64,000 nt of DNA from Gordius sp. MW1 (taxonomy: Eukaryota > Nematomorpha > Gordioida > Gordea > Gordiidae): contig OZ038529.1 in assembly GCA_964036665.1 (NCBI GenBank), forward strand, positions 6,494,501 to 6,558,500. Direction: 5' to 3'. Positions 956 through 51,286 of this stretch are shown piece after piece. Made by a program: the position numbers and the translations under genes. Every line of letters begins with the position of its first letter. Positions within the stretch are counted from its first letter, which is position 1. Below the pieces are notes generated by a model. It worked only from the letters and a program-made list of their open reading frames with translations, had not been told where the DNA came from and ran no database searches.

Positions 956-1740
956 TTATAAAAACAGTATATATATAACAATTTTAACAATTAAAAATAT
1001 TTTATAAACAACTATCAAATATATAATTATCGCGTGACTATCTTTTGAATAAATAAGGGGGTATGATATCCATTGTTTTAATTCCACGGAAAATACATGT
1101 ACAGGAATGTTAAATGCATAGGAAAATATTAAAATATCTATGTGGTTCGACCACTTACCTAAAATATATAACTCTTTGACAGTCATATATTGTGGTAAGG
1201 TACGAGGGCGTACCAAGGCTGTCACCACTTCGGGTGGATCAGCGGATATAAAATAATTATAAATATAATAGCGAATCAAAGGATGATTATCCTCTGTGTC
1301 ATATATTGCTTTGCTTATGTAACGGTAAAAACAGTTACCGTCGCCCATGGGCGTACGCAGGTTTTGAATTAGGGGGGGGGCAAAACGTTCAAAAGTTCAT
1401 TTAGAGGGGGGCAAAACATAATTTTTTTTAATTTTTCAATGTTTTTGCATTGAAAAAATTTTTTTTCCATAAATTAGGGGGGGGGGCAGCCCCCCCCCCT
1501 GCGTACGCCCACGCCGTCGCCAATAGTGATGTAAATTCCATAATTAGGTTTAAGCTCCTTGCTTGGCGATTCTATAGAAGCTATGGGGATATTATGACCC
1601 AATCTAGTATATCAATATATATATAATTATATAATTATAATACTTATCCATGGCCCAATATTTCCAAGCCATGTCTGGCAGCTTAAACCTGGGAATTTCT
1701 CGAACTTCTTCTGATACATATACGATCTCATCTTTGGGTA
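956..1740 (-). pseudogene. OTU-type cysteine protease relic
   Basis: The minus strand encodes GDGNCFYRYISKAI (near 1340-1300), the OTU catalytic block with the nucleophile Cys in D-G-N-C. A later SHAIIIYL (near 1010) supplies the expected His. Upstream, the same protein continues as NYGIYITI (about 1525-1550) and FKLPDMAWKYW (about 1650-1690). A 168-bp MITE is inserted exactly at the D-G-N-C block, which breaks the frame. OTU proteases remove ubiquitin; several transposon groups carry such domains as cargo. It lies inside the Ginger-like element, so I read it as cargo rather than a host gene. The splice structure is unresolved. Confidence 0.7.
1346..1513. mobile_element. hAT-type MITE inserted in the OTU coding region
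   Basis: 168 bp with 16-bp inverted ends (CATGGGCGTACGCAGG, one mismatch) flanked by an 8-bp duplication CCGTCGCC (1338-1345 and 1514-1521). The interior is poly-G and GGGGGGCAAAAC text with no coding. Removing it plus one duplication restores continuity of the OTU motif. Confidence 0.8.
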
Positions 1741-8348: not shown

Positions 8349-8461
8349 TTAAATCTCTTCTCGCCCGATTTTGGGTTTTATGATAAAAAAAATACAAAAA
8401 ATCAAATTTTTAGGACTTTGATATACTTCTATCGTCCGGTAGGATATTTTTATATAAAGTT
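8349..8461 (-). CDS. Microexon gene, candidate terminal exon 38
   Basis: After acceptor ACATTTGCTAG the phase-1 frame runs 36 codons to TAA (8349-8351), with a hydrophobic stretch NLIFCIFFII near the end. An ATTAAA signal-like hexamer lies about 20 nt past the stop. The frame and phase fit, but the acceptor is only moderate. Confidence 0.45.
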
Positions 8462-11400
8462 CTAGCAAATGTCTGAAGTCGAACGAAAATAATGTTTTAC
8501 CATCTTCAAATTCTAATTCTAAAAAATATACACAAAACATAAGCATATTACTTTTTCAATTTTAATATTTTACCTTGAACTGCTTCAGGACCAGACTCTG
8601 AATTTGTTGCAAAATAATTATATTTATATTATATAATGCACAAAACTTTATTATAATTTTCTATTGAAACTTAGTAGCTAAAAGATGTGTTATGTGAAAA
8701 GCTAAATGCTTAAATCTTTAGCGTCCCAATTTAAATGGGTTTTTCGTGAGAATTTATACCTCCAACGACATTTGCGACACCTAATACAAACAATATAAGG
8801 AGCGATAGGATAATTTTTTTATAAAATTTTTGTTTATATATGACGGAGCCAGGCTAAGTTTAACCCGTAGCTATCTTTAGATATTATGCCGTACCTTCTA
8901 ATTTAAAACTTAATCTAATTTAGCCCAAATCCAGTTATATTCAAATATGTTAAAGTTCAATAACAAATGTTCCTTACAAAAATATAATTATGGTTATTTT
9001 GTAAACTACAAAACAACAATTAATAACTGTCTAGTAGAGCAGTGAATCTCATTCCTGAATTTATCTTAATAGTGATGATAAATTTTAGGTCGTAATCACA
9101 GGCAAAAATTATACAATTTGTTTGTATGAACAAATTCATAAAGTTTTAACATCATTTTTATATGTGTATTTTTTATGGCTATTTAGTGTTTCGCCCCTTT
9201 AAAATATTCATACGTAAAGAAAATAAATTATGCTTTGTTTTTAAAATAAATAAAAATGTTTTTAATTTTTAAAAATATTTTATAAACTTAATTTGTTTAA
9301 TTGAGATGCTTTAATTCTTATATAAAGCACTAATAAAAATGAGAAAATAACCATTATTGTCATGTAAGTAATTAATTATTTTAAAAACAAATTTTTTTAT
9401 ATTCAAAAATTGTCATAATTTTTTTAATTAATACTTTCCATGGCTGCTCCTACATCTGTTAAATAAAAGTAAGGTGGTGTCATTTTATTAATGGACGTCA
9501 AAATATAAATTAACAAAATATAATTATAAATTGAACATATTATTTTAATTTTACCTCCAAAACTAGTCATAAACCCTAATAACATAGGTTGGGGACAAAG
9601 TTCGGTAGAGTGCAACACATGTTGCATTATTTTATCGATTTTTTGCTTCTGAGGAATTATATAATATTCATTAAGTAGAACTCTTTCCCCTCTAAAATGT
9701 GCCAATTGTGATTTTAAGAAATTTAGTTTTTTATTACTTTCGCTTAAAAGGAGTATCCAAACGGTAAAAATCAACATTTTCGACGCCTGCTATTCTTCGC
9801 TTTTCATCGTGGTCAAAACGGTGCTGAAACAGCCTGAGACATTTGTAAAGTATACGGAGAAAATGTCATAGTTGAGTCTACAGCAAAAAAATGGTTCGCA
9901 AAGTTCAAAAATGGCGATTTTGACATCGCTGACAAGCCCCGTAGCGGAAGACCCTCGGAATTCGACGAAGAGTGTCTCAAAGCACTTTTGAAGGAGGACG
10001 GTCGCCAAATAAGTCGTGAATTGGCGGAAATAATGAAGTTCGATCAGAAAACCATCCTAAATCATCTTCATTCGATGAGATTTGCCTAAAAATTGGGAGC
10101 TTGGATCCCTCACGAGCTAAACGAAAGCCACGAAGAAAATTGCCTTCAAATTGCTTCTCAACATCTCGCCCGTCATCGAGCAACCCACGGTCATAAACAG
10201 CGCTTTTTGTACCGAATCGTCACGGGAGATGAGAAATAATGTTTGTACGCAAATTTGAAGCAAAGAAAGGAGTGGGTGGCTCATGGAGCGACTCCAAAGC
10301 CGAGGGTCAAGCCTGACCTCCATCCAAAAAAGACCATGATCTGCGTTTGGTGGGACTGGGGGGGCATTCTGCATTGGGAAATTCTGGAAAGGAATGCCAC
10401 GGTCAACAAGGAGCTCTATATATCCCAGCTACACCGCGTGAATGAGACTATTCGACTCAAAAGACCCCATCGACAGGGCCAGACCATACTCCTTCATGAC
10501 AACGCAAGGCCCCATGTTGCTCAAGTCGTAAAAGCCGCACTCCAAGAGCTCGAATGGGAGGTCCTTCAGCATCCACCATTTTCTCCGGACCTTGCACCGA
10601 CGGATTACCATCTTTTCCACTGTCTCTCGAACCATATGAGGGGCGTTACCTTGGACAATGTAGAGGGCCTTAAAAACTGGCTCAACAACTTCTTCGATAC
10701 CAGACCGGTGTATTTTTTGGCGTAATGGCATCGAAAAAATGGTCAAAAGGTGGCAGGAGGTCGTAAACAGCGACAGCGAATATATTATTGTTATAACAAT
10801 AAATTAAAAACTCTACAAACTTTCTCCTCAACCTTTAAAGCTTCACTTTAGAAGTATTTTTTCAATTAAATCTAGCGTCGCTATAGGGAGAGCAGATTGC
10901 ACTTATTTCCTCAATGGATATAATCATGGGCGTACCCAGGTTTTGGATTGGGGAGGGGGCGAAAATAAAGTTTAATTAGGGGGGGGGGGCAAAACAAATT
11001 TTTTTAATTTTTAAGGGTTTTTATATTGAATATTTTTTATTTGGGGGGGGGGGGCGGCCGCTTCCCTTACATTCATAAACTAAGTATGTTTTAAGTAAAA
11101 ATTATTAAAAGTTAAAATAGAGAAATAAAATTAATAATTCAGCGATTCCAAATTTATAACAATCGTATTCCTTAGTCTAAAATGGGGTTTTTTGATTTTT
11201 GATAAAGATAAATATTGGTGGAGAGAGCTTAAGTGAAGGGATAAAGAGATGTGTTATTATACATCGCATACTATGATCGCATACGTAGTATGTACTCTAA
11301 TCTAATGTACTCTGTTTTCCCATACATAGTAGGGGGAATTTTAATGCGGGGAGGGAGGTTCAAATAAAGTTGGATAAAACTAAAAGTAATGGCGAAACAA

Positions 11401-14400
11401 AAAAATAAAATTATGATCACATAGACAAATAAATGGATAGATATATGATTAAATATATACTAGAACAGGCATGGGAATATAGCCTCAAAAAACGTTAAAA
11501 GGGCCTTTTTGCACCTTTAGCCTCATTTATCATAAAATCTGGACAACTAGGTAAAAAACTAAAAACATATTATTGTTCAGATTTTCTATCAGAATTTTTG
11601 TCAGATTATGGGATATATTTAAATCTGTATTATCAAATAATATTAATCTATATTCTCAGCATAAATAAATATTTAGTCGAAGGGACCATTATATTTTCTA
11701 ACAATCTCTCGGTATTATTGCTATTAGTAAAGATGAGCCCAAAGTGTTTGAATTAACTTAACCAGTATGTAGCCGGCCGCAAAGACACACACCATGAGAG
11801 CATAGCTTAACAGTACATTTATTTTTGCCTTGAAAATTTTAAAAATGTGTGTCTGCCACTTTTGCAATTTATAACATAAAAACATAATTACTATCACTGA
11901 GGGTGGCTAAATCTGTAAATTGTACAAATTTCTGAATAGAAATCTTAAAAACCAAATAAAAATATTCATAAAACTATTTATCATACTGGACATAGCGTCT
12001 TGAACTCCTGAATAAAAGTAGGTTAAATGTTGAATCAATTATTATATATAAAAGTTGCCAAAAGAAATTTTACTAAAATTAGCGTTAAATAAATTGTATT
12101 TAATAACAAGATCACATTTGAGGAAACATGTTGTTTAATTTTTATTATCTCATCAATAAAGTTATTATAATTTTGAGATTCATAGAAAAAATAAACATTA
12201 ATGCTACTCTTAAATTTAACTTTAAGCCAAATTTTATCTGTTTAGAGAATAAGTGCATGTTATAAATTTGTTCATTTAAAGCCATGACAAAATATGCTAT
12301 ATATAAAAATTCCTTAGTACCAGCTTGTAACAGTTCCAATGCTACAGAATCGTAATTAATATCAAATATTATTCATACTATATTAATCATATATATAGAA
12401 GAATATTTTTTAATAAGTATCATTTTAAAATCAGCGGGTATCAAAATATAGTCACATGGAGGCGCTAGAGCTATAGCACATAGTCACATAAGGCGCTAGA
12501 GCTATAGCACATAGTCACTTGAAGGCGCTAGAGCTATAGCGTGGCGCTAACATTGATATAAAATCTTTAGGTTAAATTGCATTATTAATTGCATTAACGC
12601 ACATGTGGTGCCACATGTGCGCATAATAATGCAATTTAACCTATTTTCATAACAATGTTAGCGCCACGCTATAGCTTTAGCGCCTTATGTGACTATGTGC
12701 TACACCTCTAGCGCCTCCAAGTTACTATGTGCTATAGCTTTAGCGCCTCCAAGTTAACCAATCGATCCGGTGCTATAATGCCTTTTATGTATAAAATAGC
12801 AAAAAGTTAAATTTTAAAAAATTCACATTTTAACTTAATTAACCTTCTTCTGGACCTTGTGGAGCATAAAATTCGTATTCATCTCCTAAAATTTATGTTA
12901 TTAATTTTTATTTACAAATTGAATTTTTGTTATTTAATATTTTTAGAGGTATATTACCTAATTCAGATTCGCTAAATTCATAAGCTTCGGGTTCCATATA
13001 TTGTCCGTCACCAATGTCTAATATATTAATTGCTAAGCAATTTATGGACTCGCTTTATGTGTTCAGTCAAATATGAAAGGTTATGAGCTAAACTTAGCGA
13101 TTAAAAATCAACAACCGTTTGAATTATAAAATGACCTTTTATTATTTATATTAAAATTTAATAATCAAAAATAATCTTATAAAATTAGGCTCATGCTGGT
13201 TTAAAAATGAAATTATTCAATTTTGCTTTATCCTCTTGTACATATTTAGTTGATAGGAAAGAAATCGCCTAAAGCCATATACTCGGGCAGTTTAGTTTTA
13301 TGTTAAAAAATTTGTTTTCCAAAAATTATTATGTTTATAACGAGGTACAACCTCTGACTCATGGCCTTTGGCCCCTGATAAGCAGATTTTATAATTTATC
13401 AATTATATTTCACTTCACTTTTATTTAAAAATTGATTAAACAGATATTAATGAATAGCGGATGAATTGCTTTACCTAACGGTTCATTATCATAAAAACTC
13501 AGCTCCCCGTCCTCTGTATTGCATTGACATTAAAGTCATAAATAAACGAATAATTTAGATTATAAATCTATTTTGTTTCAAATAATTCAAAGCATTTGTT
13601 ATATAATTTCATAAGTATATGTTCCTATTTTTTATTGAACTAACCGATATATTGTTTGAAAGATTTTATATATTAATATAACATTTTAAATTATTCGAAA
13701 GTATACTCTTGCTCATATTGTTATTTTTCAAATTTCAATTAAAAATGTTAGCTTAAGCTATTACTTTTAGAAAATTTTTACCCTCATATTCGATGTTTTT
13801 AATGGATAAATTTTCGGTCGAGGGTGTTAAAAAGAAATTATAATTATTATAATAATATTTCGTCCTATTTAAGGACATCTTCGGATTAAATTAAAATAGA
13901 ATTACAAAATAAAATAAAATAATACAATTAAATCGAACGTTCTAAAGGGAGGTTAATATTATAATGTAAGAAAGGATACAGGTTCTCTTTACCCATATCT
14001 TCATTGAGTGTTGGGTGTAATCTTCGAATGAAAAAGGACTCTAGGGTTTTTCTTTCAAAATAGGTCTCGGTGTTAACTAAAATGGTTGTTTTTAAATTGT
14101 TTCCGTGATTTAGTTGTAATAAATGATTTGAAACGGCGGTTAAATTTGCGTTTGAGCGATATAATGCCGCTAGATGTTCCTTGAATCGTGTTCTAAAATC
14201 TCTTCAAACTATTCGTGATAAAGTTTTTATAACATTTCCACACCCTCAATATATACCTTATAGTTTCATAAGAAACATAAGACACATTTTAAGGAACAAC
14301 AATATGAACAACATTATAATAAGTCAGAAACCCAACAGATCTTTACTAAATATTATACAAAATAATTACCAATCATCTCCTACTACAAACAACTTAATAT

Positions 14401-17400
14401 ATAAGATAACTTGTAATGATTGCAATAATTTCTATATTGGTGAAACAAAAAGAGATTTTAGAACACGATTCAAGGAACATCTAGCGGCATTATATCGCTC
14501 AAACGCAAATTTAACCGCCGTTTCAAATCATTTATTACAACTAAATCACGGAAACAATTTAAAAACAACCATTTTAGTTAACACCGAGACCTATTTTGAA
14601 AGAAAAACCCTAGAGTCCTTTTTCATTCGAAGATTACACCCAACACTCAATGAAGATATGGGTAAAGAGAACCTGTATCCTTTCTTACATTATAATATTA
14701 ACCTCCCTTTAGAACGTTCGATTTAATTGTATTATTTTATTTTATTTTGTAATTCTATTTTAATTTAATCCGAAGATGTCCTTAAATAGGACGAAATATT
14801 ATTATAATAATTATAATTTCTTTTTAACACCCTCGACAATTCCCGAAAATTTATCCATTAAAAAATTAAGCTATTACGTTTATTTTTCTTTAAACATTGT
14901 ATAAAATGCGTATGAAAGTTATAACCTGCTGGCAAACTGAAGTCTTCGCTAAGTTGATAAGCATTAGGGTCCATATATTCCTCGTCGCTAGAAACTATAA
15001 TAATAACCACAATTGTGTTAGATTTATTTTAAAACTTAAACAGACAACAAAATACTTTGCCTATTATTAAACAAGAATTCATCATGAGATATTTAATTGC
15101 TTTCCGGGCTATCAATTAAATTTTGGTGGTCCGTGTCTTCTAAATTAAAAAATATTCATCTAAAGTCTTTACAGTGCTATAAAAATCTGCCATAGCTATT
15201 TATTGTTCCTTTTGATTATTTTTTAATGGGCCTATTCTAAATACTTAATTGAAAATTTTCTCATATAATTTATTAGTTTATTTTAATTTAGCTCGTATTC
15301 AAAAATGTATATGTAATAACAACCTCCGGGTAAATCTTCACTGCTTTCAAATGCATTAAGATCCATATATTCCCCATCGCCAAAATCTATAGTTTCAAAT
15401 TATGCTAGTGCCTATACTATGTATTGCATTTAATATGATAAGTCTTTTCGTATAATAAATTTATAAGAAAAATTGCAAAGTTATTAATTTTTATAGGCAA
15501 TCATGCAAAATATCGAATTAATTAATTTGTATGAAGCCCTAGTTGGTCTCCAAAGTATAATAACAATAACTTTTTATTTTGTAGAGTAGTAATAATTCAC
15601 TAGGTGATTATTCAGGTTTTTAAATAGTGGCGAAATGTTATGATTTAATAAAACAAAGGGCGAACTTATAGTTTGAAATCTAATCTCATTTTTTTAAATA
15701 AAAAATAAATTTGTATTCAAGAAGCATGGCGACTCCTTTGGTTACGCTTACGCCCTTAAATGCTATAATACTTCTTCAAATACAATTTTATATATAGTTT
15801 ATTCCAAAAAATAATTTACACTAAAATTTAATGAAGAACCGAGTTGAAAAAAGTTGGTAAATTATGGTTTTAATTATTTTAAGGAATTCATACTAGTTTA
15901 AAACTTCTTTATAATTAAGTCCATTTTAAGAAAATTGAAAAACATATTTAATTTCATGAAAGTAAACCCATTACCAATTTTCAGATCCCTTCTAAATATT
16001 TATTAACCTTGAGACGTCCCCGGTTCAGGATTCTCTATATAAATAATCCATATTAAAGGTTTTTTTTAATTCTTTGCTATAATTTCATGAAAGTAAATCC
16101 ATTACCAATTTTCAGATCCCTTCTAAATATTTATTTACCTTGAGACGTCCCCGGTTCAGGATTCTCTATATAAATAATCCATATTAAAGGTTTTTTTTAA
16201 TTCTTTGCTATAATTTCATGAAAGTAAATCCATTACCAATTTTCAGATCCCTTCTAAATATTTATTTACCTTGAGATGTCCCCGGTTCAGGATTCTCTAT
16301 ATAAATAATCCATATTAAAGGTTTTTTTTAAATTCTTTGCTATAATTTCATGAAAGTAAATCCATTACCAATTTTCCGATCCCTTCTAAATATTTATTTA
16401 CCTTGAGACGTCCCCGGTTCAGGATTCTCTATATTAATAATCCATATTAAAGGCTTTTTTTAATTCTTTGCTATAATTTCATGAAAGGAAACCCATTACC
16501 AATTTTCAGATCCCTTCTAAATATTTATTTACCTTGAGACGTCCCCGGTTCAGGATTCTCTATATAAATAATCCATATTATAGTTTTTTTTTAATTCTTT
16601 GCTATAATTTCATGAAAGTAAACCCATTACCAATTTTCAGATCCCTTCTAAATATTTATTTACCTTGAGACGTCCCCGGTTCCGGATTCTCTATATTAAT
16701 AATCCATATTAAAGGTTTTTTTTAATTCTTTGCTATTAATTTTGTATGCTATTTAAAAATGAAGTGATAAACCAATGCAAAAATATCAAAGGCAAACCAT
16801 CTAAGCGTTGCCTCTTCGCTGCTAAAAGGTGAATAGAAAATTTTAAATAAAAGATTGATATTTTATTTAACCGACTTCCTTACATGAGCTACTATCATCT
16901 TCCAATTTTCGTTTATAGACGTTTCCTAAATTAATTGTAAAAGGTTGATACATCTCATAATTCTAAATTGCTTACTATTAAAATTAAAGCCATAGAAAAT
17001 ATTCTCCAAATAATTATGATAAAATTAAATATAATATTTTAAAATTTCGTCCTTGGCCCCCTATCCCATTACATTTTTTTCTAATGTCATGGCTTAATTA
17101 TAAATGATTACCTTCATCAGGGGTATCTTCGGATGTTGGCTGTTCTATACCTAATAGCGTTCATGGATTTTAAATAAGTATAAGTTTCAAGTGATTTTAA
17201 AAATGTAAATAGCATTGTTATACTACTAGCTTCCTGATTTCCACTGGTTCCTGGCTGAGGTTCACCATCATTGGCTATTGAATCAATGATGTCTATTTAA
17301 ACAAGTAATTGATAAGATCGTGGAAAAAAGGGTATCATTAACGTATTTAATTCACTATTATTCATTGGCGTAGGAAAGGGAGGGGGGTTTCGGGTTAGGA

Positions 17401-20400: not shown

Positions 20401-23400
20401 AACACTTTATTCAAGAATTTAATAAACGTTAAGAATCTATTGCGAGTAAAATATTTCTACTCTTTCTACTGACTATTTCTTTTACAATTCGATTTAAATA
20501 GTTATAACAATAATGATGCATGATGTTGATAAACAAAAATAAAATGGTAGAGCACAACAATAATACATAGATATAGAGATCATGGGTGAGGAGCGTAACA
20601 TAAAGATGGCGCTAAATAAATATGGCGCACAGTAAACATAAACAACGCTGCTAACAACTAACAAGGGGAAGAATTGAAGATGTAAATAGGTAAACAATAG
20701 TAGTGTACCACGCGTTGATAATGCTGAAGGTGGTAAGTAATACAATGGGGGGGGGGGGAACTTTTAGAAAAATCAAACTAACACGAGATCACCGTGACCT
20801 TGAATGGGGTATTTTTTTACGACCCTTTATTAAATCTATTTTTAACTCTCCCTAAGAGAAAGAAGGGTAATTAAAACTGGAAAAGGAGGGAATCTAAAAC
20901 AAAGCGCCTCCAACTGGATTAAACTAAAATTAAAAAGGAGAAAGGGGGAGAAAACAGGGAGTAGTGACACCACATTTATATAAATGGATTTGGTCATAAA
21001 ATTTTTCGTAAAAACAATATCTAGGTAAATTTAGTCTTTCCATTTAATGGACAAAAAATAGTAGATTTAACTTTTTATACAAATATTTTTAATATAGAAG
21101 ATAATCAAAATGTTAAACTGTCTTTAAACATTGTGAAAATTAGCTCAAAATTTAAAAAAAAATACATTTCGTAATTGAGTTTTGAATTATTAATTAAAAA
21201 ATAATTATCAGTTGCATTGCAAGATAATTTGAGTTTTCCACAATTTATATATCAAAGTTATTCTAGTATCGCTTATTGCAAGCAACTTATTCCTATATTT
21301 GGTAAATTTTGAAAGCAGAAATTTATCATATATTACAATTTACATAGATATTAGAGAAGCTAGGGCTCGGGTCCAGCTATAAAATATTTTTTCGGGGTCG
21401 GATCGTGGTCCGGCCAAAAAATATAAATTCAGTTTGGGCTTTTGAAAAACAAATTTGCAGATCTTTTTTCTACTAAAACAGGTGCTATAATTTACTATAT
21501 TTAACATTTTTAATAATGTTAAAATTTGAACCGGTCCCAGGCATTAAATGCTTTCGAGTTGGAGAGGTGGAACATTGAAAATATTGAATTTTTTATGTTA
21601 TTTTCAAAGAGTCAAGTTATTATGGAGATGTTATGGCTTAAAATTACATTAATTCAAAGCAATCGAAGCTTTATTTTCAAAATTACATAGAAATATGCTG
21701 TAGATAAAGTATTTTTGCATGCGTTTTAAAGTCCTACTCGGGAATATAGGGGGCGAGGAGTTGCTTTTATTAAATAAATTTCTAAATTACAAATTAATGA
21801 ATCTTGGAGTTTATTTATCAAATATTACAACTTAGAGATATAACAATATTTGTAAATATTTTGCATATTTTCTGAGGGTGATAGATCAATGTAACAGAAG
21901 AATCGCCCTTTAGAAACTTATGTATATATTTGTAAAAATTTGTCATTAAGCACAATATTATGTTATATTTGAAAATAGTTTCGATTACAGTTTGTCGTGG
22001 ATTCGTTTCTAATTACATCATAGCTTTGAGGCCATTTTTATACCTTAATAATTTAACACTTTAAAAATTGCCATAAAATTATTCTATATTACATCTCCTA
22101 AACTGGACCGCATCTCAGGTCTCAGGCCTCAAGATGTAATCTTGCGTTCCACGTTATTTTTACTAATTTTAAAAAAACTATATGCTTTTTATTGTTTACA
22201 CATAATGCAAAAAAATAGAGACCATTCTGCAAGATACCTGTTAAAATCTCAACCGTGTACGATTCATTTTTTTCGTTATTATAATACGTCGTCACTGCTC
22301 CTACATAAATTATAATCATATTATATATAAGATTACAGAAACATGTTTGATTAAAGTAAATTTCACCGGATTTTGCTTCAGAAAAGTTATTTAAGGCCTG
22401 GTGAGTAATAGTTTGTAGAAGTTTAGGTGATAGGCTATTTTTTGAGCGTACTATTAATTTTTCTAAATATATTATATATTTAAGGGTAAAGGGTAATATA
22501 AACGTACTTGTGTTGTTTGTTGACAGTGGGTCCAAAACCGAATAAATTCTTATATTTGGGACTTTACCTTGTATAAATTAATATGAGATTTTATAAGTAA
22601 ATTATTGTTGCGATGTTATTGACAATTATTTACGCTTAAGAAAAATAATAATTAAATGAAGTTAGCACAAAGTTTACTTATTTGTTTGTAAAGTTTATTA
22701 GTTTTATAGTGCTAAACTTAAGGAATTATATGATATTACAGCAATCATTAATCGTCTAAGCTTTATTCAATAAAATATATAAGATTTTATATTTTCCTTT
22801 CAAATTACTTAAATTTAAATTGGATTCGTACGGTATGATTTGATATGAGTCCTTAGTTCTTGTATCATTGTCACTTTGAGTTTTCGATATTACTGTAAAT
22901 AAGAAAATAATACGACTATAACAACTTTAACATAGTTTACATATAGAAGAGGCCCTTAAAAATATTTATAAGTAACTGACTGGGCATTGTTGGACTTAGT
23001 TTAAATTTTCAGGTCTCTCTTTTTAGACATAAATAAATTAAAGAATGTGACTGTCTTTACCAGTCATGTTGGATTTTGATTGAAATCTTGGGCTCCAAAC
23101 TCTACTATTGTCAATATTAAAAGTAGAGGTGGGCAGGGGACCGCTTTGGGTTGAGTTATTAGTTATATTTTGCTTTATCTCAGCTATAATTATTGAACCA
23201 GGTCCTTGATATTATAACAAGATATTAATTGTAATTATTGATATGCTTGAACAGCACATTTCGTTAAAAATTTCATCATTTATTATTATTTAGAATATCA
23301 AAAATTTATATTTCAATATTATCAAAAATTTTAGGAAAGTAATTCACCAACTTTAATTTAAGTAGTAGAATTAATACCTTGGTCCTTTTTTCCATAAGTT

Positions 23401-26400
23401 TTATACCGTTGGGAGAATCCATGATCATCAGCGAATTTCTTTGTAAACCCTTAAAATTGATTAAATTTAATTTATAAAATTTATTCATTTACAGCTATAT
23501 GTCATAAACTTAAAGAATAAATATTTTTGCAAACAATTGTAAACCATTATTTTCAAATAAGGCTCTGCAGAGAAATAAAAACCCTAACCTTTTTAATTGT
23601 TTACACTAGGGATGGAAATCTTAAAACCTTAAACGTTACGCAACCCAACCTTGTCTATTTAAAATAGGGTTTTTTAAATTGGACGACTAGAAATGCTCCT
23701 CTTTCCTTCCCCAGTTAAAGCATATGTGCTATTTAATATTGTGTTTTCATAATATGATAATTTTACTAATTATATGTGTGTCCCAATTTACATTTGAAAT
23801 TTTTTGGTTTTAAAACCTGCAACTAAATAGACTCGGGCCTTCGGCCCTCGTGGGAAGGGGGAGGGGGGAAGGGAAGGGGGAACGAAACTCATCTATACTC
23901 CGTATAAATGTATCATATTTGCTATGCAATTTATGGGCGAGAAAGGTGGGAAGGGACGAGAATGCCAATAGGTGGGATTAAATGCAAAATTATTAGTTAA
24001 TTATTAATTTAAACAAATATTTAAAAGGTTAAATGGTATTAACAAGAACAATATATTAATTTAAAAAATAAAAAAATTTGCCCTCGCCGGGATTCGAACC
24101 CACATCAGTAGAGGCATAGGCTTTTGTAGGGGCACAGGGACCCATATCAGTAGAGGCGTAGGCCCTTGTAGGAAAGGGCATAGGGTAATTATCAACGTTA
24201 ACCTAATATACCCAATTCAAAAACGAAAAAATAAAATTTCGAATTATTTGGCCAATCGTCATTTCTTCATTGGTCAGTAGCCAGCGGACGGTCAAAAATT
24301 CATATTATCAATGGTATTAACAAGAACAAAATATTAATTTAATTTAAAAAAAAAACGTCCTCTCCTGGGATTGAACACGAGCCTACAGGATACAAGCCGT
24401 GCGCTATAACCACTCACACCCTGCTGCTATTATAATTGTAGAAGTTTTTATGTTATTTATATAGATAACGATATTTCATCGGTCAGTAGCCAGCGGACGG
24501 TCAAAAAGTCATAATATCAATGGTATTCACAAGAACAAAATATTAATTTAATTTAAAAAAAATTAAAAAAATTCGTCCTCTCCGGGGATTGAATAAATTG
24601 CATAGCAATTAAAAATGTCTCTGCCTACCTGCTTTTTTATTTAATTAATTAACATTAAAGACTAGAAGTTAAAGTTTTATTTGTTATTTTGCTTTCCAAC
24701 AAATGCCCCCAGTAAATTAATACGGAAAAAATAAAAGATGATAATAATTAAAAGGTTAGGCTGATGCAAAGCCAAAAAATAATTAATTCTTATGATTTAT
24801 TATCAAATTTAAGTGATAAAATACTTACAAATCGGCCTGCCAAAAGGATAGCCTTCTATCTCATTAATTTATTTGCAATATTTGTAATGCCAAGGTATTT
24901 GTTAAAAATAACAAATGTTCGAATTGGGTTTGTAACATGGGGTAACCAAAATGGAAGGTGATAAATGCCTCAAAAAGAAGATTTTTTTGTATTTTTAGCC
25001 AATTTATTCAATATAAAATATATATGGAATTAAGGGTGGCTTTCCTTGTACCTGCCCATAGCTGCATCTTTAGTATGGCTGCAACTTCAATTATTACTTT
25101 TTAGGCCGCCTTTCTAATTCGCCAATTGAGTTTGTGAATATTCTATAGTTAGTAGTTGTGATCAATAATATATACGCGAGCGTAGCCTAGATTCAAATTA
25201 CAGGGGGGCAATAACGATTTAGTTAGAGGCAAAATGATCATATTTTTGTATTTTAGTCTTGACTATATTAAACTTAAAAAAAAATGGATTTAGAGGAGGC
25301 AGCCGCCGGGCGTAGCCAAGGAGAGCTGATAAGTTGGCCCGCGGTTTTTGTGCCGATTAATTCCTTTAAGGGGCGAGGGGGTGGAGCGCAATCGATCGAA
25401 AAGCTATGCCCCGCCCCCGCTAAGAAGGGTGGGGATGAATCAACTGCTGCTGCACTGTGTGAGGGAGGTTGTGTGTGTGGTGGCGGATTAGATTAACCCT
25501 GGCAATGAATTCGTTTTATGAGCGCTTGCGCTACGCATTTTTATCACTCACTGCCGCACTACTAAATTAACTAACGTTGATTTTGCAGCCGATGGCACTA
25601 GAATTTATATGCAGCTCTACATATTGTTTTCAAGAATAATTTTATCAAAATATTTTTATAACAAATTTGTTATACCTTTGTTAGAATATAGCTAATATTT
25701 AATTTCATACAATTTATCTCCCTTAAAAAACTTAGGAAGAACGTTTAGCTTGGTTGTGAGGCGATCCCTTCTAGGGGAGGGGATAGGGTAATTATTATCA
25801 ATGTTAACCTCATATACCAATTCATAAACGAAAAAAAATAAATTGCATAGCAATTATAAATTTCGATTTACAATTTGTTCTTTAATATAATAAAATAATT
25901 AATCGAAGGATGGATAATTATTAAAATATGCTTCTAATCGACCACGTGATAATAATAATTGCCCTCCTGTTTTTCGATTACAATTAAAATGGTTAAAATA
26001 TTATCGTTAAGTTACATCAAAGACTTTAAAGCAGTTATAAAAAGTTTATATATACATGTAATTTTTTTGATTAAATTTTTGACAAAATGCGAATTTTATT
26101 TTTTCTAAACAAAATTTGTTTTACTTTTGCCTCATGGAAAAATACACATATGGTTTAAATTTTGATTTAATATCATTATTATTTTAAAAAATAATTAGAA
26201 AGATACTTAAAAACAATTTAGCGAATGGTCATTTTTTTCATTGATCAGTAGCCAGGACACGGTCAAAAAGGATATAAATACATAAGAGGCGATTAAAAAA
26301 CGGAAAAAAAATTTCAAATCCCAATTTGGCCAATGGTCACTTTTTCCCATTGGTCAGTAACAATAGACGGTCTATAAATACATACGAGTCAAAAAAAACG

Positions 26401-28398
26401 AAAAAAAAATTTGATTCACACTTTGGCCAATGGTGATTTTTTCCATTGGTCAGCAGCCAACGGACGGCCAAAAAGTCACATTATCAATGGTATTAACAAA
26501 AAAAATATATTAATTTAAAAAAAAACGAAAAAAAAATTTTGATTTACACTTTGGCCAATGGTAATTTTTTTCATTGGTCAGTAGCCAGCGGACGGTCAAA
26601 AAGTTATATAATCAATGGTATTAACAAGAACAATATATTAATTTAATTTAAAAATAAATAAAAATTTTGCCTTCTCCGGGATTCGAACCCACATTAGTAG
26701 AGGCATAGGCTTTTGTAGGGACACAGGGACCCATATCAGTAGGGGCATAGGCATTTGTAGGGGAGGGCACAGGGTAATTAACAATGTTAACCAATTCAAA
26801 AAAAAAAAAAATTTCGATTTATACTTTGGCCAATGGTCATTTTTTCATTGATCAATAGCCAGAACACTGTCAAAAAGTAATATTATCAATGGTATTCACA
26901 AGAACAATATATTAATTTAATTAAAGAAAATAGAAATTTTGCCCTCTCCGGGATTCGAACCCTCATTAGTAAAGGCATAGTCTTTTGTAGGGGCACAGGG
27001 ACCCACATTAGTAAAGGCATAGGCTTTTGTAGGGGCATAGGGACCCATATTAGTAGAGGCGTAGACCCTTGTAGGAAAGGGCATAGGGTATTTATCAATA
27101 TTAACCTAATATACCCAATTCAAAGACGAAAAAATAAAATTTCGAGTTATTTGGCCAATGGTCAATTTTTTCATTGGTCAGTAGCCAGCGGACGGTCAAA
27201 AATTCATATTATCAATGTTATTAACAAGAACAAAATATTAATTTAATTTAAAAAAAATTAAAAAAAAATCGTCCTCTCTTTGGATTGAACTCAAGACCTC
27301 CAGGTCATAAAGCTGGCGCCAATAACTTGGTGAACGACGGGCGACGGACGACGGACGACGGACGGACAACAAAAAACGAGCCCATAAATTGCATAGCAAT
27401 TAAAATAGCTATAAGATGGGGGTAGCCAAGCACTCTTTATTTAGAACATTAATATTCTTAGCAAATTTATGGTTAAAATTAATATTTATTTTGCCCCTCC
27501 CTAAAACATTATAAAACCCTTCGCCTAACTCAAGCCTGGCAACGCCCCTGCTTATTAATGTAAGCATTAGTGTACCTTGGAAGTTGTTAGACGTGGCGCA
27601 ATCCATGGAAAAATTTAGTGCTAAAATTAAAAAGTAATTTTAATTAAATCTAAACCCTTCTAACGTATAAATATTATTAAGTTATGAAATATATTAAAAC
27701 TAAATTATTCCTTACCATAGGATTTAACAATTATGTTCACATTTACAATACTCGTCGTGATTTCGTCAGTCATAGCTGTTATAAAAAACAATAAGCCTTC
27801 AGAGAATTTTGTATAAGGATATTTTTAATTTGCTCCTTTTAAACCTTATTTAAAAAGTGTGTTTAGATTTTATTTAAGAGCTTTAATATTTTTTATCAAT
27901 GTTTAAGTTATAAATAAATGGCGATCCGGCGCGATTTTTCTTAACCCAGTCGGTTTTGAAATCTTATTTTCGGGGCAAAATTTCGGAAAATATTTTACAA
28001 TATAGATTTTAAACTTACTTTAGAATAAAAAAATTGATCATTATTTTATTAAAAACCTAAATGATAAATTTTATGCCTTAAAAGTATAGATTAAATAGAC
28101 AGCTTATTTTTTTGAGAGCTGAACAGAATATGAGGGCTTCAATAAAATCATTATCAAACAGCCTACACATATAGTTTAAGGCAATCTATAAAGTTTATTT
28201 ATATTTTATAAGAATATTATAAGAGATCAGCGACACATTTTAAGGCTTTTTTAAACTTATTTCTGATAAATTTATATATTTTTGTAAAATATATTCTCAT
28301 TTAAAGTTAGTAATAACAATATTTTTACCCGTTTGAAGGTAAATTGTGGATAGTAGAGTGATCCATAACATAGTCCCTCCGATTTTGAAGATAGGCAT
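8349..28398 (-). CDS. Secreted microexon gene (about 38 candidate exons; gene-level entry)
   Basis: Seen: an ATG exon coding a hydrophobic N-terminus, then a long series of short exons, each with AG acceptor and GT donor and nearly all 3n long in the same 1-1 phase, so any exon can be gained or skipped without a frame change. Junction codons never create stops. With exon 33 in its 21-nt form the sum is 1812 nt, about 603 codons plus stop. Exon sizes run 9-126 nt apart from a 330-nt exon, with introns up to about 2.5 kb. The product would be secreted or membrane-tethered, acidic, with repeated G-D-G-x-Y-M and ENPEPGTSQ units. Known: aphid bicycle effectors and schistosome MEGs share this architecture. 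Inferred: a fast-evolving secreted protein; I recognise no family. Introns host a mariner, Penelope, foldback, MITE and tRNA-like repeats. Exon-level entries follow; some exons will be wrong or missing. Confidence 0.75.
8501..8518 (-). CDS. Microexon gene, exon 37 (18 nt)
   Basis: Acceptor GTATATTTTTTAG, donor GTAAAA, phase 1-1. Encodes LEFED. Confidence 0.65.
8574..8597 (-). CDS. Microexon gene, exon 36 (24 nt)
   Basis: Acceptor GCAACAAATTCAG, donor GTAAAA, phase 1-1. Encodes SGPEAVQ. Confidence 0.65.
8760..8780 (-). CDS. Microexon gene, exon 35 (21 nt)
   Basis: Acceptor TTGTTTGTATTAG, donor GTATAA, phase 1-1. Encodes VANVVG. Confidence 0.65.
9435..9455 (-). CDS. Microexon gene, exon 34 (21 nt)
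   Basis: Acceptor TACTTTTATTTAACAG, donor GTATTA, phase 1-1. Encodes VGAAME. Confidence 0.65.
9555..9780 (-). CDS. Microexon gene, exon 33 (truncated by mariner, or a 21-nt exon)
   Basis: Donor GTAAAATT in phase 1 follows GFMTSFG. The frame stays open for about 75 codons upstream to the mariner edge (SQLAHFRGERVLLNEYY, STELCPQPMLLGF), more than expected by chance in this composition. Alternatively a minimal 21-nt exon (9555-9575) starts after ACCTATGTTATTAG. Which form is spliced cannot be decided from sequence. Confidence 0.5.
9781..10806 (+). pseudogene. mariner transposase relic (D,D34D), 5'-truncated
   Basis: One frame runs from 9781 with mariner text throughout: ESTAKKWFAKFKNGDFDI and KPRSGRPSEF in the helix-turn-helix half, TGDEK with the first Asp (10228), HDNARPH with the second (about 10499) and SPDLAPTDYHLF with the third. 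It carries stops at 9835, 10087 and 10237, and a one-base frameshift near 10723, after which MVKRWQEVVNSD follows in another frame to a stop at about 10804. About ten N-terminal residues are missing and no matching terminal repeats were found. Dead copy, lying within what looks like a coding exon of the microexon gene. Confidence 0.9.
10847..10880 (-). CDS. Possible 5' part of exon 33, cut off by the mariner
   Basis: Acceptor TCTGCTCTCCCTATAG followed in phase 1 by TLDLIEKILLK, open up to the mariner's 3' flank. With the mariner removed it would continue into the frame at 9780 (see exon 33). Exact junction not resolved. Confidence 0.4.
10925..11068 (+). mobile_element. GGGCGTACCCAGG MITE, right end lost
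   Basis: It starts CATGGGCGTACCCAGG, as in the MITE at 1346, followed by G-run and GGGCAAAACAAA modules and GGGCGGCCGCTTCCC. No matching right end or duplication was found, so it is a truncated copy. Confidence 0.6.
11515..11538 (-). CDS. Microexon gene, exon 32 (24 nt)
   Basis: Acceptor ACCTAGTTGTCCAG with a long pyrimidine tract, donor GTGCAA, phase 1-1. Encodes FMINEAK. Confidence 0.6.
11898..11912 (-). CDS. Microexon gene, candidate exon 31 (15 nt)
   Basis: Acceptor GTACAATTTACAG, donor GTGATA, phase 1-1. Encodes LATL. Confidence 0.5.
11987..12007 (-). CDS. Microexon gene, exon 30 (21 nt)
   Basis: Strong acceptor CTACTTTTATTCAG, donor GTATGA, phase 1-1. Encodes VQDAMS. Confidence 0.6.
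12321..12341 (-). CDS. Microexon gene, exon 29 (21 nt)
   Basis: Acceptor TACGATTCTGTAG, donor GTACTA, phase 1-1. Encodes LELLQA. Confidence 0.55.
12445..12760. mobile_element. Foldback element with 33-bp direct repeats in each arm
   Basis: A near-perfect palindrome. The arms (about 12445-12605 and 12610-12760) each hold three copies of GGCGCTAGAGCTATAGCAC-type text and meet at the centre in GCACATGTGG/CCACATGTGC. Non-coding; it lies in an intron of the microexon gene between exons 28 and 29. Confidence 0.8.
12844..12885 (-). CDS. Microexon gene, exon 28 (42 nt)
   Basis: Acceptor ATAAATTTTAG, donor GTTAAT, phase 1-1. Encodes DEYEFYAPQGPEE. Confidence 0.7.
12958..13017 (-). CDS. Microexon gene, exon 27 (60 nt, GDGQYM type)
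   Basis: Acceptor TTAATATATTAG, donor GTAATA, phase 1-1. Encodes IGDGQYMEPEAYEFSESEL. Confidence 0.8.
   Translation of the reverse strand, partial: TLVTDNIWNPKLMNLANLN
13475..13513 (-). CDS. Microexon gene, exon 26 (39 nt)
   Basis: Acceptor AATGCAATACAG, donor GTAAAG, phase 1-1. Encodes DGELSFYDNEPL, acidic with D-G-E, a shortened version of the GDGEYM exons. Confidence 0.75.
13858..13884 (-). ncRNA. Degenerate hammerhead-like core, inverted Penelope copy
   Basis: On the minus strand CCGAAGA, a GTCC/GGAC stem II with a 7-nt loop, then GAAA. This matches the hammerhead core CUGANGA...GAAA with U4 changed to C and one extra U before stem II. Penelope-like elements are known to carry hammerheads in their repeats. 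Confidence 0.45.
14208..14726 (+). pseudogene. Penelope-like RT tail plus GIY-YIG endonuclease domain
   Basis: Open over about 170 codons. It begins in the middle of the conserved RT C-terminal tail (VFITFPHPQYIPYSFI) and continues through a linker to LIYKITCNDCNNFYIGETKR, where the IYKI and FYIG strands form the GIY-YIG pair and the two Cys belong to the CCHH-type finger. RTRFKEHL supplies the conserved Arg, and the protein ends soon after SFFIRRLHPTLNE. The catalytic RT is lost (5' truncation), so the fragment cannot move itself. The start codon is not real. Confidence 0.8.
14770..14796 (+). ncRNA. Degenerate hammerhead-like core, Penelope 3' copy
   Basis: Same motif as at 13858-13884, on the plus strand: CCGAAGA, GTCC stem, GGAC, GAAA. 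Self-cleavage is doubtful because of U4C. Confidence 0.45.
14926..14994 (-). CDS. Microexon gene, exon 25 (69 nt, DEEYM type)
   Basis: Acceptor GTTATTATTATAG, donor GTTATA, phase 1-1. Encodes SSDEEYMDPNAYQLSEDF then SLPA. A second AG seven bases in would break the phase, which fixes this start. Confidence 0.75.
15324..15386 (-). CDS. Microexon gene, exon 24 (63 nt, GDGEYM type)
   Basis: Acceptor TTTGAAACTATAG, donor GTTGTT, phase 1-1. Encodes FGDGEYMDLNAFESSEDLPG. Clearly related to exons 25 and 27. Confidence 0.75.
16008..16034 (-). CDS. Tandem microexon 23 (27 nt)
   Basis: Last copy; the exon is unchanged but the donor is GTTAAT instead of GTAAAT, so splicing may be weaker. Confidence 0.6.
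16139..16165 (-). CDS. Tandem microexon 22 (27 nt)
   Basis: Same exon, splice sites intact. Confidence 0.7.
16270..16296 (-). CDS. Tandem microexon 21 (27 nt)
   Basis: Same exon with one synonymous change (ACG to ACA); splice sites intact. Confidence 0.7.
16402..16428 (-). CDS. Tandem microexon 20 (27 nt)
   Basis: Same exon, with acceptor TTAATATAG and donor GTAAAT intact. Confidence 0.7.
16543..16569 (-). CDS. Tandem microexon 19 (27 nt)
   Basis: Same 9-codon exon, with acceptor TTATATAG and donor GTAAAT intact. Confidence 0.7.
16664..16690 (-). CDS. Tandem microexon 18 (27 nt, ENPEPGTSQ)
   Basis: First of six in transcript order, phase 1-1. One synonymous change (CCT to CCG) relative to the others. 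Confidence 0.7.
16798..16821 (-). CDS. Microexon gene, candidate exon 17 (24 nt)
   Basis: Acceptor TTCACCTTTTAG, donor GTTTGC, phase 1-1. Encodes AKRQRLD, basic. Confidence 0.55.
16884..16925 (-). CDS. Microexon gene, exon 16 (42 nt)
   Basis: Acceptor ATTAATTTAG, donor GTAAGG, phase 1-1. Encodes NVYKRKLEDDSSS, with a basic KRK. Confidence 0.75.
17112..17150 (-). CDS. Microexon gene, exon 15 (39 nt)
   Basis: Acceptor AACGCTATTAG, donor GTAATC, phase 1-1. Encodes IEQPTSEDTPDE, acidic, again with a PTS core. Confidence 0.75.
17227..17274 (-). CDS. Microexon gene, exon 14 (48 nt)
   Basis: Acceptor TTGATTCAATAG, donor GTAGTA, phase 1-1. Encodes NDGEPQPGTSGNQEA; the PQPGTS core resembles the EPGTSQ unit of the tandem exons. 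Confidence 0.7.
17363..17589. mobile_element. hAT-type MITE in an intron of the microexon gene
   Basis: 227 bp with ends CATTGGCGTAGG and, inverted, CATAGGCGTAGCC. It is flanked by an 8-bp duplication CTATTATT (17355-17362 and 17590-17597). Interior of C/G runs and poly-T; non-coding. Same superfamily as the MITE at 1346. Confidence 0.8.
17862..17914 (-). CDS. Possible alternative terminal exon of the microexon gene
   Basis: After an acceptor-like GGTCTGGTCTAAG the phase-1 frame reads DTLFDARETLVITKNK then TAG. If used, it would end the protein after exon 13. No independent support. Confidence 0.2.
18011..18136 (-). CDS. Microexon gene, exon 13 (126 nt, Gly/Ala-rich)
   Basis: Acceptor ATATCTTTACTTTAG, donor GTTCGT, phase 1-1, 42 codons. 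It encodes a Gly/Ala/Thr-rich stretch (GAGATGGTGAAGAAASG) then an acidic segment AEDAEAEVVRQVME. The GC content is much higher than that of the flanking DNA, a clear coding signal. Confidence 0.8.
18208..18300. repeat. Repeat with terminal ATTGCTATGCAAT motif and tRNA B-box-like text
   Basis: AATTGCTATGCAATTTATGG followed by GGATTCAAATCTCGC, which resembles a tRNA T-arm. Short member of the repeat family described at 23830. A weak open frame across it is not a gene. Confidence 0.5.
18845..19200 (+). repeat. Half of the foldback repeat seen whole at 59640-60475
   Basis: Text such as GAAGGGAGGGCG, GCAAGTTATTTACGTTTAAA and AAAACTAAAAACACATTTGT matches one arm of the 59.6-kb foldback in the same order. 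Immediately before it (18775-18835) is a GGGCCGGGCCGGGCC terminus resembling a hAT end. Confidence 0.6.
19867..19875 (-). CDS. Microexon gene, candidate exon 12 (9 nt)
   Basis: Acceptor CCAATTTTATAG, exon TAGCGGGAG, donor GTGAGC, phase 1-1. The donor is strong. Confidence 0.45.
20031..20042 (-). CDS. Microexon gene, candidate exon 11 (12 nt)
   Basis: Acceptor TTGCTAACTTAG and a perfect GTAAGT donor bracket 12 nt (codes VVI plus split codons), phase 1-1. Confidence 0.5.
20130..20138 (-). CDS. Microexon gene, candidate exon 10 (9 nt)
   Basis: AG/GAACTACAA/GTAATA, phase 1-1. Plausible only because it fits the phase and lies next to two similar tiny exons. Confidence 0.3.
22238..22567 (-). CDS. 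Microexon gene, exon 9 (330 nt, largest)
   Basis: Acceptor ATTTATACAAG, donor CAG/GTATCT, exactly 110 codons in phase 1-1. The frame stays open to a stop at 22122 if the donor is not used, an alternative 3' end. An open stretch this long is unlikely by chance in such AT-rich DNA. The product has a basic amphipathic middle (YIIYLEKLIVRSKNSLSP) and a NQTCFCNLIYN segment with a Cys pair. No domain recognised. Confidence 0.65.
22809..22892 (-). CDS. Microexon gene, exon 8 (84 nt)
   Basis: Strong acceptor TTTTCTTATTTACAG, donor GTAATTTG, phase 1-1, 28 codons open (ISKTQSDNDTRTKDSYQI, then IPYESNLNL). Confidence 0.7.
23061..23099 (-). CDS. Microexon gene, candidate exon 7 (39 nt)
   Basis: Donor GTAAAG is good. 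Three AG acceptors lie close together; only the one after AGTAGAG gives an open 1-1 exon (WSPRFQSKSNMT), so the start is uncertain. Confidence 0.45.
23378..23449 (-). CDS. Microexon gene, exon 6 (72 nt)
   Basis: Acceptor AATCAATTTTAAG, donor GTATTAATT, phase 1-1, open frame FTKKFADDHGFSQRYKTYG followed by KKDQ. Basic and aromatic composition. Confidence 0.65.
23830..24620 (+). repeat. Composite repeat array unit (terminal ATTGCATAGCAAT family), first block
   Basis: Begins CTCGGGCCTTCGGCCCTCG with GGGAAGG runs and TTTGCTATGCAATTTATGGG. It continues with modules CTCGCCGGGATTCGAACCC (tRNA T-arm-like), GGCATAGGGTAATTATCAA and GGTCAGTAGCCAGCGGACGG, and ends near TTGCATAGCAATT at 24598. Inserted in an intron of the microexon gene. 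Confidence 0.75.
24365..24432 (-). repeat. tRNA-derived SINE head
   Basis: On the minus strand GTGTGAGTGGTTATAGCGC (A-box-like) is followed about 25 nt later by GTGTTCAATCCC (B-box-like), then GGAGAGG. The spacing suits a tRNA-derived promoter, not a working tRNA gene, since the acceptor stem does not close. Confidence 0.55.
24829..24852 (-). CDS. Microexon gene, candidate exon 5 (24 nt)
   Basis: Consensus donor GTAAGT; acceptor GATAGAAG is weak. Phase 1-1, encodes YPFGRPI. Accepted mainly for the donor and the fitting length. Confidence 0.4.
25052..25096 (-). CDS. Microexon gene, candidate exon 4 (45 nt)
   Basis: Acceptor GCGGCCTAAAAAG (weak pyrimidine tract), donor GTACAAGG, phase 1-1, open frame IIEVAAILKMQLWA. 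It lies in a stretch of unique DNA between two repeat arrays. Confidence 0.5.
25735..27405 (+). repeat. Composite repeat array, second block
   Basis: Four or more imperfect units of about 330 bp with modules GGCCAATGGTCA, TCATTGGTCAGTAGCCAGCG, TATCAATGGTATTAACAAGA and CTCTCCGGGATTCGAACC. It ends in CGGACGACGGACG text and CCCATAAATTGCATAGCAAT. Non-coding. Confidence 0.8.
27576..27620 (-). CDS. Microexon gene, exon 3 (45 nt)
   Basis: Acceptor CTTTTTAATTTTAG, donor GTACAC, phase 1-1. Encodes LNFSMDCATSNNFQ. Confidence 0.7.
27716..27775 (-). CDS. Microexon gene, exon 2 (60 nt)
   Basis: Acceptor TTTTTTATAACAG, donor GTAAGG, phase 1-1, no stop. It encodes MTDEITTSIVNVNIIVKSY after the junction codon. 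One of the best-supported exons because both splice sites are strong. Confidence 0.8.
28329..28398 (-). CDS. Microexon gene, exon 1: start codon and signal peptide
   Basis: ATG at 28398-28396, then 23 codons plus one base before a GTAAAAAT donor. After MPIFKIGG comes the hydrophobic run TMLWITLLSTIYL, typical of a signal peptide core. It ends in phase 1, which fixes the phase of every later exon. A 5' UTR presumably lies upstream; no promoter could be placed. Confidence 0.75.
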
Positions 28399-29149
28399 GA
28401 TAACTTTTTATAAGGACGAGAATGAAGTATTTATCTTTAAAAATTGAATAAATACAAGATAATATCAATATGAGATTGTTTCCTTTTTATTCAAATGGCT
28501 ATTGAATTTTTGTAGGTACGTGATGTTTTTCCAATACAGTGTATTAAACGCGTGAACTTATAAGTTTTATTTTTCCTCTTATTTAATTTTAATAAAGAAA
28601 AAAAATTAACTCTTTTTGTTTGCTTTTGGTAGTTCATATTACACGTGTAAGTTCAGCGAACTGAGTACACCTTTATGAAATAGTCAAAATAAAGTTGCAA
28701 ATAGTAAAACTTTTCCCAAAACTAAAATTATGTTATTTTTAACCTTCCGCTATTTAGTATTTACCCAGAAGAAAAATATAAAATATCATAGCAAGTTTTT
28801 TCAATTGTTAATCTATCAAACTACATTCCTAAGAAATTAAAACTTGTATTTTGAGCCCGACCCAGTTCATTATACAAATATATTATATAATATCCTTCAA
28901 AACTCGACTAAGCAAAATGATTAAAAAATTAATTGAGAAATCATCTATTAATGTTGGTTATGCCAAGCAAACATTTATTTTTAAAAACGCGGTAGTTGAA
29001 AGCAGCTTAAGCTCAATGTTAATGTAAAGCCGATAACAACCCATTAATTGCTAACCCCGACACTAAATATTATTTCTCGACATTTAGGACGATGGGCGTA
29101 GATTGTTCAACTCTTTTCGGTTCATGCAACAAAATTAATGCTAAAAACT
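28399..29149. other. Upstream region of the microexon gene
   Basis: No ORF or repeat of note. A TATAAAAAG lies only about 10 bp from the start codon on the minus strand and is too close to be a promoter for it. The promoter could not be placed. The right edge is the 8-bp duplication of hAT-C. Confidence 0.5.
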
Positions 29150-30475: not shown

Positions 30476-30599
30476 AAGACAAGTCGCAATTTTTTTCTTA
30501 AAAATTAAGGAATTCAAATAGATTAAAAATATATTATATTTTTAGTTAAATTTCACTTCATTTTAATTGGAATAAATGTTAAAATTTCGATTATATTAA

Positions 30600-51263: not shown

Positions 51264-51286
51264 TGTCGCCCATATGGGACGGCCCG

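What the first reader, a model, noticed from the sequence alone, without database searches (positions are those of the whole stretch)
8349..28398. A hidden ~38-exon microexon gene with uniformly phase 1-1 exons
No long ORF marks this gene, yet on the minus strand a chain of short segments has AG/GT borders, lengths divisible by three and one shared phase, and joins without a single junction stop into about 600 codons, counting exon 33 in its short form. The chance of so many short open segments all fitting one phase is low. The closest architectures I know are aphid bicycle effectors and schistosome MEGs, both fast-evolving secreted families, but no motif here identifies a family.
Basis: partly seen in the sequence, partly recalled or inferred. 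Interest (0 to 1): 0.95.

Follow-up and report, generated by a model that had tools for sequence, protein, structure and literature searches.

The report
Hidden microexon gene in a hairworm
A horsehair worm (a parasite of arthropods) appears to carry an orphan gene chopped into about 35 mostly very small exons that share one reading-frame phase and probably encode a secreted protein, an architecture best known from plant-feeding insects and blood flukes; no RNA evidence was available.

Summary
A phase-1 chain search scores 154; 60 dinucleotide shuffles reach at most 27. With long ORFs masked it scores 144, against at most 87 in 150 surrounding controls. Three internal exons are diverged copies, alike only inside the exon, with synonymous change well above amino-acid change.

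The insect setting is wrong: the assembly's mitochondrial COX1 is 95% identical to Gordius sp., a horsehair worm. Word-based searches found no homologous protein, and own-genome searches found only this gene. The published structure-only 'bicycle' classifier still calls it positive (p 0.99, cut-off 0.72), so such architecture probably arose more than once. Most likely it is a secreted, modular protein with acidic, tyrosine-rich repeats; its role is inferred. Transcript proof is missing.

The parts
28404..28412 (-). TATA-like sequence (TATAAAAAG); too close to the first ATG (28398), better placed for a start at the in-frame ATG at 28371
   Evidence: read, checked
28329..28398 (-). exon 1, signal-peptide-like (MPIFKIGGTMLWITLLSTIYLQT; second Met at 28371)
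   Evidence: hydropathy of the best 11-aa window 1.8; no signal-peptide program available
27716..27775 (-). exon 2
27576..27620 (-). exon 3 (less certain; the free-phase search chose a longer form)
23378..23449 (-). exon 4
23061..23204 (-). exon 5, with N-glycosylation sequons
22809..22892 (-). exon 6 (less certain)
22508..22567 (-). exon 7 (uncertain; exons 7-9 may be one exon within the 151-codon frame 22122-22577)
22367..22462 (-). exon 8 (uncertain)
22238..22300 (-). exon 9
19252..19362 (-). exon 10, four cysteines (less certain)
18011..18133 (-). exon 11, Gly/Ala-rich (the free-phase search chose the acceptor 3 nt upstream)
17227..17292 (-). exon 12 (less certain; donor by eye, GTAGTA or 3 nt further)
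17112..17150 (-). exon 13 (the free-phase search chose an acceptor 6 nt further in)
16884..16925 (-). exon 14, basic motif KRKLEDD
16798..16821 (-). exon 15, basic motif AKRQRLD
16664..16690 (-). exon 16, ENPEPGTSQ, tandem copy 1
16533..16559 (-). exon 17, tandem copy 2
16402..16428 (-). exon 18, tandem copy 3
16270..16296 (-). exon 19, tandem copy 4
16139..16165 (-). exon 20, tandem copy 5
16008..16034 (-). exon 21, tandem copy 6
15949..16742 (-). 131-nt tandem array (exon plus intron), six units; the search of the whole genome returned this place only
15324..15386 (-). exon 22, acidic module copy A (DGEYMDLNAFESSEDL)
14926..14994 (-). exon 23, acidic module copy B (DEEYMDPNAYQLSED)
13475..13513 (-). 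exon 24, acidic
13342..13374 (-). exon 25 (less certain; by eye)
12958..13017 (-). exon 26, acidic module copy C (DGQYMEPEAYEFSES)
12844..12885 (-). exon 27, acidic (DEYEFYAPQGPEE)
11987..12007 (-). exon 28 (less certain)
11892..11912 (-). exon 29 (less certain)
11793..11828 (-). exon 30 (less certain; the free-phase search chose another form)
9555..9575 (-). exon 31 (uncertain; beyond the mariner-type insertion; the free-phase search chose a longer form)
8760..8780 (-). exon 32
8574..8597 (-). exon 33
8501..8518 (-). exon 34, 18 nt
8349..8428 (-). exon 35 with stop TAA (less certain; by eye); contains a hydrophobic stretch; ATTAAA begins 14 nt after the stop

Best explanation
An orphan protein-coding gene of the horsehair worm Gordius, apparently single-copy, about 35 coding exons over 20 kb, encoding a protein of about 600 residues that enters the secretory pathway. 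Because every internal exon is bounded by phase-1 introns, exons can be duplicated, lost or skipped without breaking the frame; the tandem ENPEPGTSQ exons and the diverged EYMD exons show that such copying has happened, recently and long ago. The product is laid out as: signal peptide; sequon-rich region; Gly/Ala-rich exon; two basic motifs; six ENPEPGTSQ repeats; acidic, tyrosine-rich modules; tail. I think it most likely works outside the worm's cells as a modular, mostly unstructured polyanion: tyrosines flanked by acidic residues are candidate sulfation sites, and the repeats would bind basic partners many-to-one, at the host interface or in a secreted coat. Shown: the exon chain in the DNA, exon copying, constraint, organism. 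Inferred: splicing, secretion, site of action.
For: Class 1-1 exons are typical of extracellular modules (recalled).
Against: No transcript. Several exons rest on weak splice sites or on reading by eye. Only 3 of those 8 tyrosines have an acidic residue directly before them. KRKLEDD and AKRQRLD look like nuclear localisation signals as much as processing sites. The last exon holds a stretch more hydrophobic than the first (11-aa window 2.47 against 1.8), so a membrane anchor is possible. Signal peptide and sulfation were judged by eye. No homologue shows conservation between species. That the 5' part (28.4-18.0 kb) and the 3' part (17.3-8.3 kb) belong to one transcript rests on phase only.
Confidence: 0.6

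Rival explanations
1. A structural secreted protein of the worm itself (cuticle, gland or egg-string matrix): a repetitive extracellular protein whose small symmetric exons are ordinary for such proteins, with no role in the host.
For: Gly/Ala-rich exon 11, repeats, phase 1-1 exons, sequons; no paralogues of an effector family found in the genome.
Against: 8 cysteines in 602 residues and no collagen, chitin-binding or other known matrix domain in a near-complete joined model; 20 kb for 600 residues is extreme.
Confidence: 0.3
2. Two genes: a secreted one upstream and a downstream nuclear protein with basic localisation motifs and acidic, aromatic, activation-domain-like repeats.
For: KRKLEDD and AKRQRLD on neighbouring exons; net charge -30 with 14 aromatics in 102 residues of exons 22-27; sequons only in the upstream part; a 718-nt intron divides the halves.
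Against: All exons of the model share one phase across the divide. No start exon or promoter was sought for a second gene.
Confidence: 0.2
3. A homologue of aphid bicycle genes (same family by descent).
For: The published structure-only classifier gives p 0.991 for the full model and 0.891 for a 25-exon core, cut-off 0.72; same exon phase.
Against: The organism is a nematomorph; no protein at E<=10 among those scored; 8 cysteines in 602 residues, none in exons 11-27.
Confidence: 0.03
4. A chance chain of open segments, or a decayed gene.
For: AT-rich, repeat-rich DNA yields many small open AG/GT segments; unmasked transposon frames elsewhere score as high; the free-phase search also picked 25 of 49 exons in other phases.
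Against: Chain score against shuffles and masked controls; synonymous excess between exon copies.
Confidence: 0.05

Closest known systems
Aphid, phylloxerid and coccid bicycle and megacycle genes (Stern and Han 2022, PMC9168663; sections 3, 6, 8, 11, 12, 17 read)
   Same: Signal exon, many small internal exons nearly all starting at codon position 2, internal repetition, no known domain; the model passes their GLM.
   Different: Different phylum; no repeated CYC motif seen; no sequence match; one copy found here, whereas the paper reports numbers from a few to hundreds of bicycle genes and usually one megacycle gene per species; expression unknown here.
Schistosome microexon genes, MEGs (PMC5825161; passages read)
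   Same: Parasite gene with many short symmetric exons encoding a probably secreted, lineage-specific protein; could yield variants by exon skipping.
   Different: MEGs are described as having about 80% of the coding region in exons of 6-36 bp; here 15 of 33 internal exons are that short and they hold 21% of the coding length; different phylum.
Other proteins built of small phase 1-1 exons, such as elastin (recalled, no call)
   Same: Uniform phase 1-1 small exons and repeats, Gly/Ala-rich stretch.
   Different: Strongly acidic modules here; no sequence relation tested.

Membership tests
bicycle genes | Structure-only GLM score at or above 0.72 | tested here: met
   p 0.991 (33 internal exons), 0.891 (23 internal exons of a core model) with the published coefficients; depends on my exon model
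bicycle genes | Almost all internal exons start at codon position 2 | tested here: met
   33 of 33 in the model, which was built with that phase; 24 of 49 in the free-phase search
bicycle genes | CYC motifs (the paper finds none obvious in non-aphid members) | tested here: not met
   5 cysteines in exons 2-10, none in 11-27, 3 in 28-35; judged by count, no motif model used
bicycle genes | Found in aphids, phylloxerids, coccids | tested here: not met
   COX1 95% identical to Gordius sp.
bicycle genes | Sequence similarity to known members | tested here: not met
   none at E<=10 among those scored; remote members could escape a word-based search
bicycle genes | Saposin-like fold (PMC13041983, abstract and outline seen) | not testable with these tools
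   structure prediction here does not take spliced models
schistosome MEG | About 80% of coding region in symmetric exons of 6-36 bp | tested here: not met
   21%
schistosome MEG | Signal peptide, secreted product | tested here: inconclusive
   hydrophobic first exon by eye and hydropathy; no signal-peptide program
schistosome MEG | Alternative splicing of microexons | not testable with these tools
   no RNA data
Nematomorpha, near Gordius (the organism) | Mitochondrial COX1 closest to Gordius, and repeats inside mitochondrial genes | tested here: met
   95% Gordius sp., 87% Gordionus alpestris, 81 and 80% two more hairworms, then at most 67% in the other 116 of the 120 listed; hairpin-like repeats in the mitochondrial contig; coding palindromes known for the phylum (PMC6649704, passages)

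The most novel reading that the evidence does not exclude
Horsehair worms have independently evolved a microexon-gene type of secreted host-interface protein, convergent with aphid bicycle genes and schistosome MEGs; its exon array makes frame-neutral variants, and the acidic or basic modules act on host proteins, possibly inside host nuclei, during the parasitic phase.
Probability: 0.2. Interest if true: 0.9.

Novelty: new variant of a known kind. Interest (0 to 1): 0.62.

Why it matters
If transcripts confirm it, uniform phase 1-1 microexon genes exist in another, unrelated parasitic lineage, in a phylum whose manipulation of host behaviour has a mechanism that is 'largely unknown' (abstract of PMC12456768, 2025, seen in the listing). 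It also shows that a structure-only classifier used to argue deep homology among insect effector genes is satisfied by a worm gene that is very unlikely to be a homologue, so shared exon phase and size need not mean shared descent. Such genes leave no long ORF and are probably missed by standard annotation (inference).

Tried and rejected
Aphid or other insect origin: first suspected from the bicycle resemblance; a squalene synthase on the same chromosome and TTAGGG telomeres spoke against it (that insects lack the enzyme, and that most have other telomeres, is recalled). A pterobranch origin was considered, because the single AGG in COX1 falls on the conserved Lys, and dropped when tRNA order looked ecdysozoan (judged from recalled orders) and COX1 matched Gordius. 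An odorant-binding family search returned nothing and was uninformative. RNA genes: none found in the window. A paper search by assembly size found two papers, both on pepper. No paper on microexons in Nematomorpha appeared among those listed in my searches (20 of 7,136 listed; 10 of 61; 10 of 121, none of the ten mentioning Nematomorpha; 8 of 9); that is weak evidence of absence, and the library holds open-licence papers only.

Full report
What was checked. The finding claims a chain of about 38 short exons on the minus strand, 28398 to 8349. It has 35 exons, 1809 coding nucleotides, 602 codons and one stop at the end; internal exons number 33, mean 50 nt, median 39, range 18-144; 20 are at most 51 nt. 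The ends were set to the finding's coordinates and both proved to be an ATG and an in-frame TAA. Exons 10, 12, 25 and 35 rest partly on reading by eye.

Is it more than chance. A dynamic-programming chain over candidate exons, with fixed generic splice and codon weights of my own choosing, gives 154 for minus-strand phase 1 against 65 and 33 for the other two phases on the same strand, and at most 27 in 60 dinucleotide shuffles. Real DNA is a harder control: unmasked, transposon-rich tiles nearby score up to 159 (40000-60050, plus strand) and 150. With open frames of 100 codons or more masked, the gene span gives 144 and the next strand/phase in the same span 57; 150 values from tiles not overlapping it (25 overlapping 20-kb tiles, six strand/phase combinations; not independent) have mean 32.5, sd 16.3, maximum 86.6. 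With five of six tandem exons dropped the score is still 111.8. Counting candidates alone is less striking: 17 against 5.3 per 20 kb at threshold 6, while minus-strand phase 0 gave 10. A free-phase search chose 24 of 49 exons in class 1-1 at penalty 3 (26 of 57, 20 of 39 and 19 of 26 at penalties 2, 4 and 5); at penalty 3 all 24 overlap model exons, 22 with identical borders. The absence of junction stops is weak evidence: 26 of 34 junction codons begin with G and only two with T.

Independent sign of coding. Exons 22, 23 and 26 are diverged copies (found also by the repeat finder). Similarity stops at the exon borders: 40-nt flanks are 30-42% identical. Synonymous sites differ at 56-81%, amino-acid sites at 18-33%. 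In the six-unit 131-nt array two of the 27 exon columns vary, both without amino-acid change; 11 of the 90 intron columns compared vary. The genome search with the array returned only this place.

Whose genome. The assembly has 211.8 Mb in 12 contigs, TTAGGG repeats at 8 of the 10 ends that I read of C1-C8 (none at the starts of C9-C12) and a 14.8-kb mitochondrial contig. Its COX1 is 95% identical to Gordius sp. VVA-2019, 87% to Gordionus alpestris, 81 and 80% to two other hairworms, and at most 67% to the other 116 proteins listed. Repeats inside its mitochondrial genes fit the coding palindromes described for Nematomorpha (PMC6649704, passages). The organism is a horsehair worm close to Gordius sp.; the species is not settled.

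What the product looks like. Exon 1 encodes a hydrophobic start; a TATA-like box at 28412-28404 favours the second in-frame Met (28371). Exons 2-10: 10 sequons in 245 residues. Exon 11: Gly/Ala-rich. Exons 14-15: basic KRKLEDD and AKRQRLD, which resemble nuclear localisation signals or dibasic processing sites (recalled patterns). Exons 16-21: six ENPEPGTSQ. Exons 22-27: 31 acidic and one basic residue in 102, with 14 aromatic residues. The C-terminal end holds a hydrophobic stretch. No Pfam family passes its cut-off; the best was Pro-rich at 16.9 bits, cut-off 30. No protein reached E<=10 among those scored (7,991 candidates, 82). Own-genome protein searches found only the gene itself; divergent microexons of about 20 residues would escape them, so 'single-copy' is provisional.

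How it most likely works. Secretion, then action outside the worm's cells as a modular polyanion, with exon number adjustable without frame loss. That it acts on the host is plausible for a parasite but not shown; a structural coat protein, and a split into a secreted and a nuclear gene, remain open.

Against known kinds. With the published coefficients (PMC9168663 section 17) the bicycle classifier gives 0.991, or 0.891 for a 25-exon core. Sequence, CYC motif and taxon do not fit, so I do not file it as bicycle. Far less of its coding length lies in exons of 6-36 bp than is described for schistosome MEGs (PMC5825161 passages). It resembles both in build and belongs to neither on the features tested.

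Surroundings. Introns of the model hold a mariner-type transposase remnant (10240-10725) and a GIY-YIG open frame that looks Penelope-like (14127-14726) (names partly recalled). Much of the rest of the window is mobile elements and repeats. The one host gene that I recognised by eye among ORFs of 110 codons or more in the flanks is a UBAP1-like frame about 44-46 kb before the window's first base.

Noticed in passing
genome-wide; window 24596-24610, 25841-25855, 27387-27401, 30598-30612 and others: A small hairpin word AAATTGCATAGCAATT occurs 16,578 times in the genome (8,391 + 8,187) against 0 for its reversed control; the 15-nt core has 14 places with at most one mismatch in the window against 0.06 expected. 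Perhaps part of an abundant mobile element.
   Followed up: partly
G000:C12 (L042, L043): Mitochondrial contig with repeats inside genes, open frames of COX3, ND4 and ND5 broken over several frames, and a single AGG in COX1 at the conserved Lys of the HKDIG motif; tRNA-Lys anticodon CTT (gene names assigned by eye).
   Followed up: partly
G000:C3:3814424-3815450: Squalene synthase exons: the hairworm keeps a sterol-pathway enzyme that nematodes and insects lack (recalled).
   Followed up: partly
G000:C8: At 37.4 Mb the largest contig, yet listed after seven contigs sorted by size: candidate sex chromosome.
   Followed up: no
window 40461-42109 and 57805-59367: Parts of a non-LTR (RTE-like, recalled) element, each next to a 119-nt satellite (42524-43016, 56867-57356), with a Gypsy-like element between them (48174-52135, with the same 25-nt repeat on both sides, 47940 and 52233): looks like one element split by a later insertion.
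   Followed up: no
window 22122-22577 (-): 151-codon open frame without a Pfam match, overlapping exons 7-9: may be one longer exon.
   Followed up: partly
window 15101-15139 (-): An open 39-nt stretch (DTDHQNLIDSPE) after an AG, in the same phase, followed by GC instead of GT: possible extra exon with a GC donor.
   Followed up: partly
window 956-1396 (-): Open frame with an OTU-like cysteine protease domain, probably of a mobile element.
   Followed up: no
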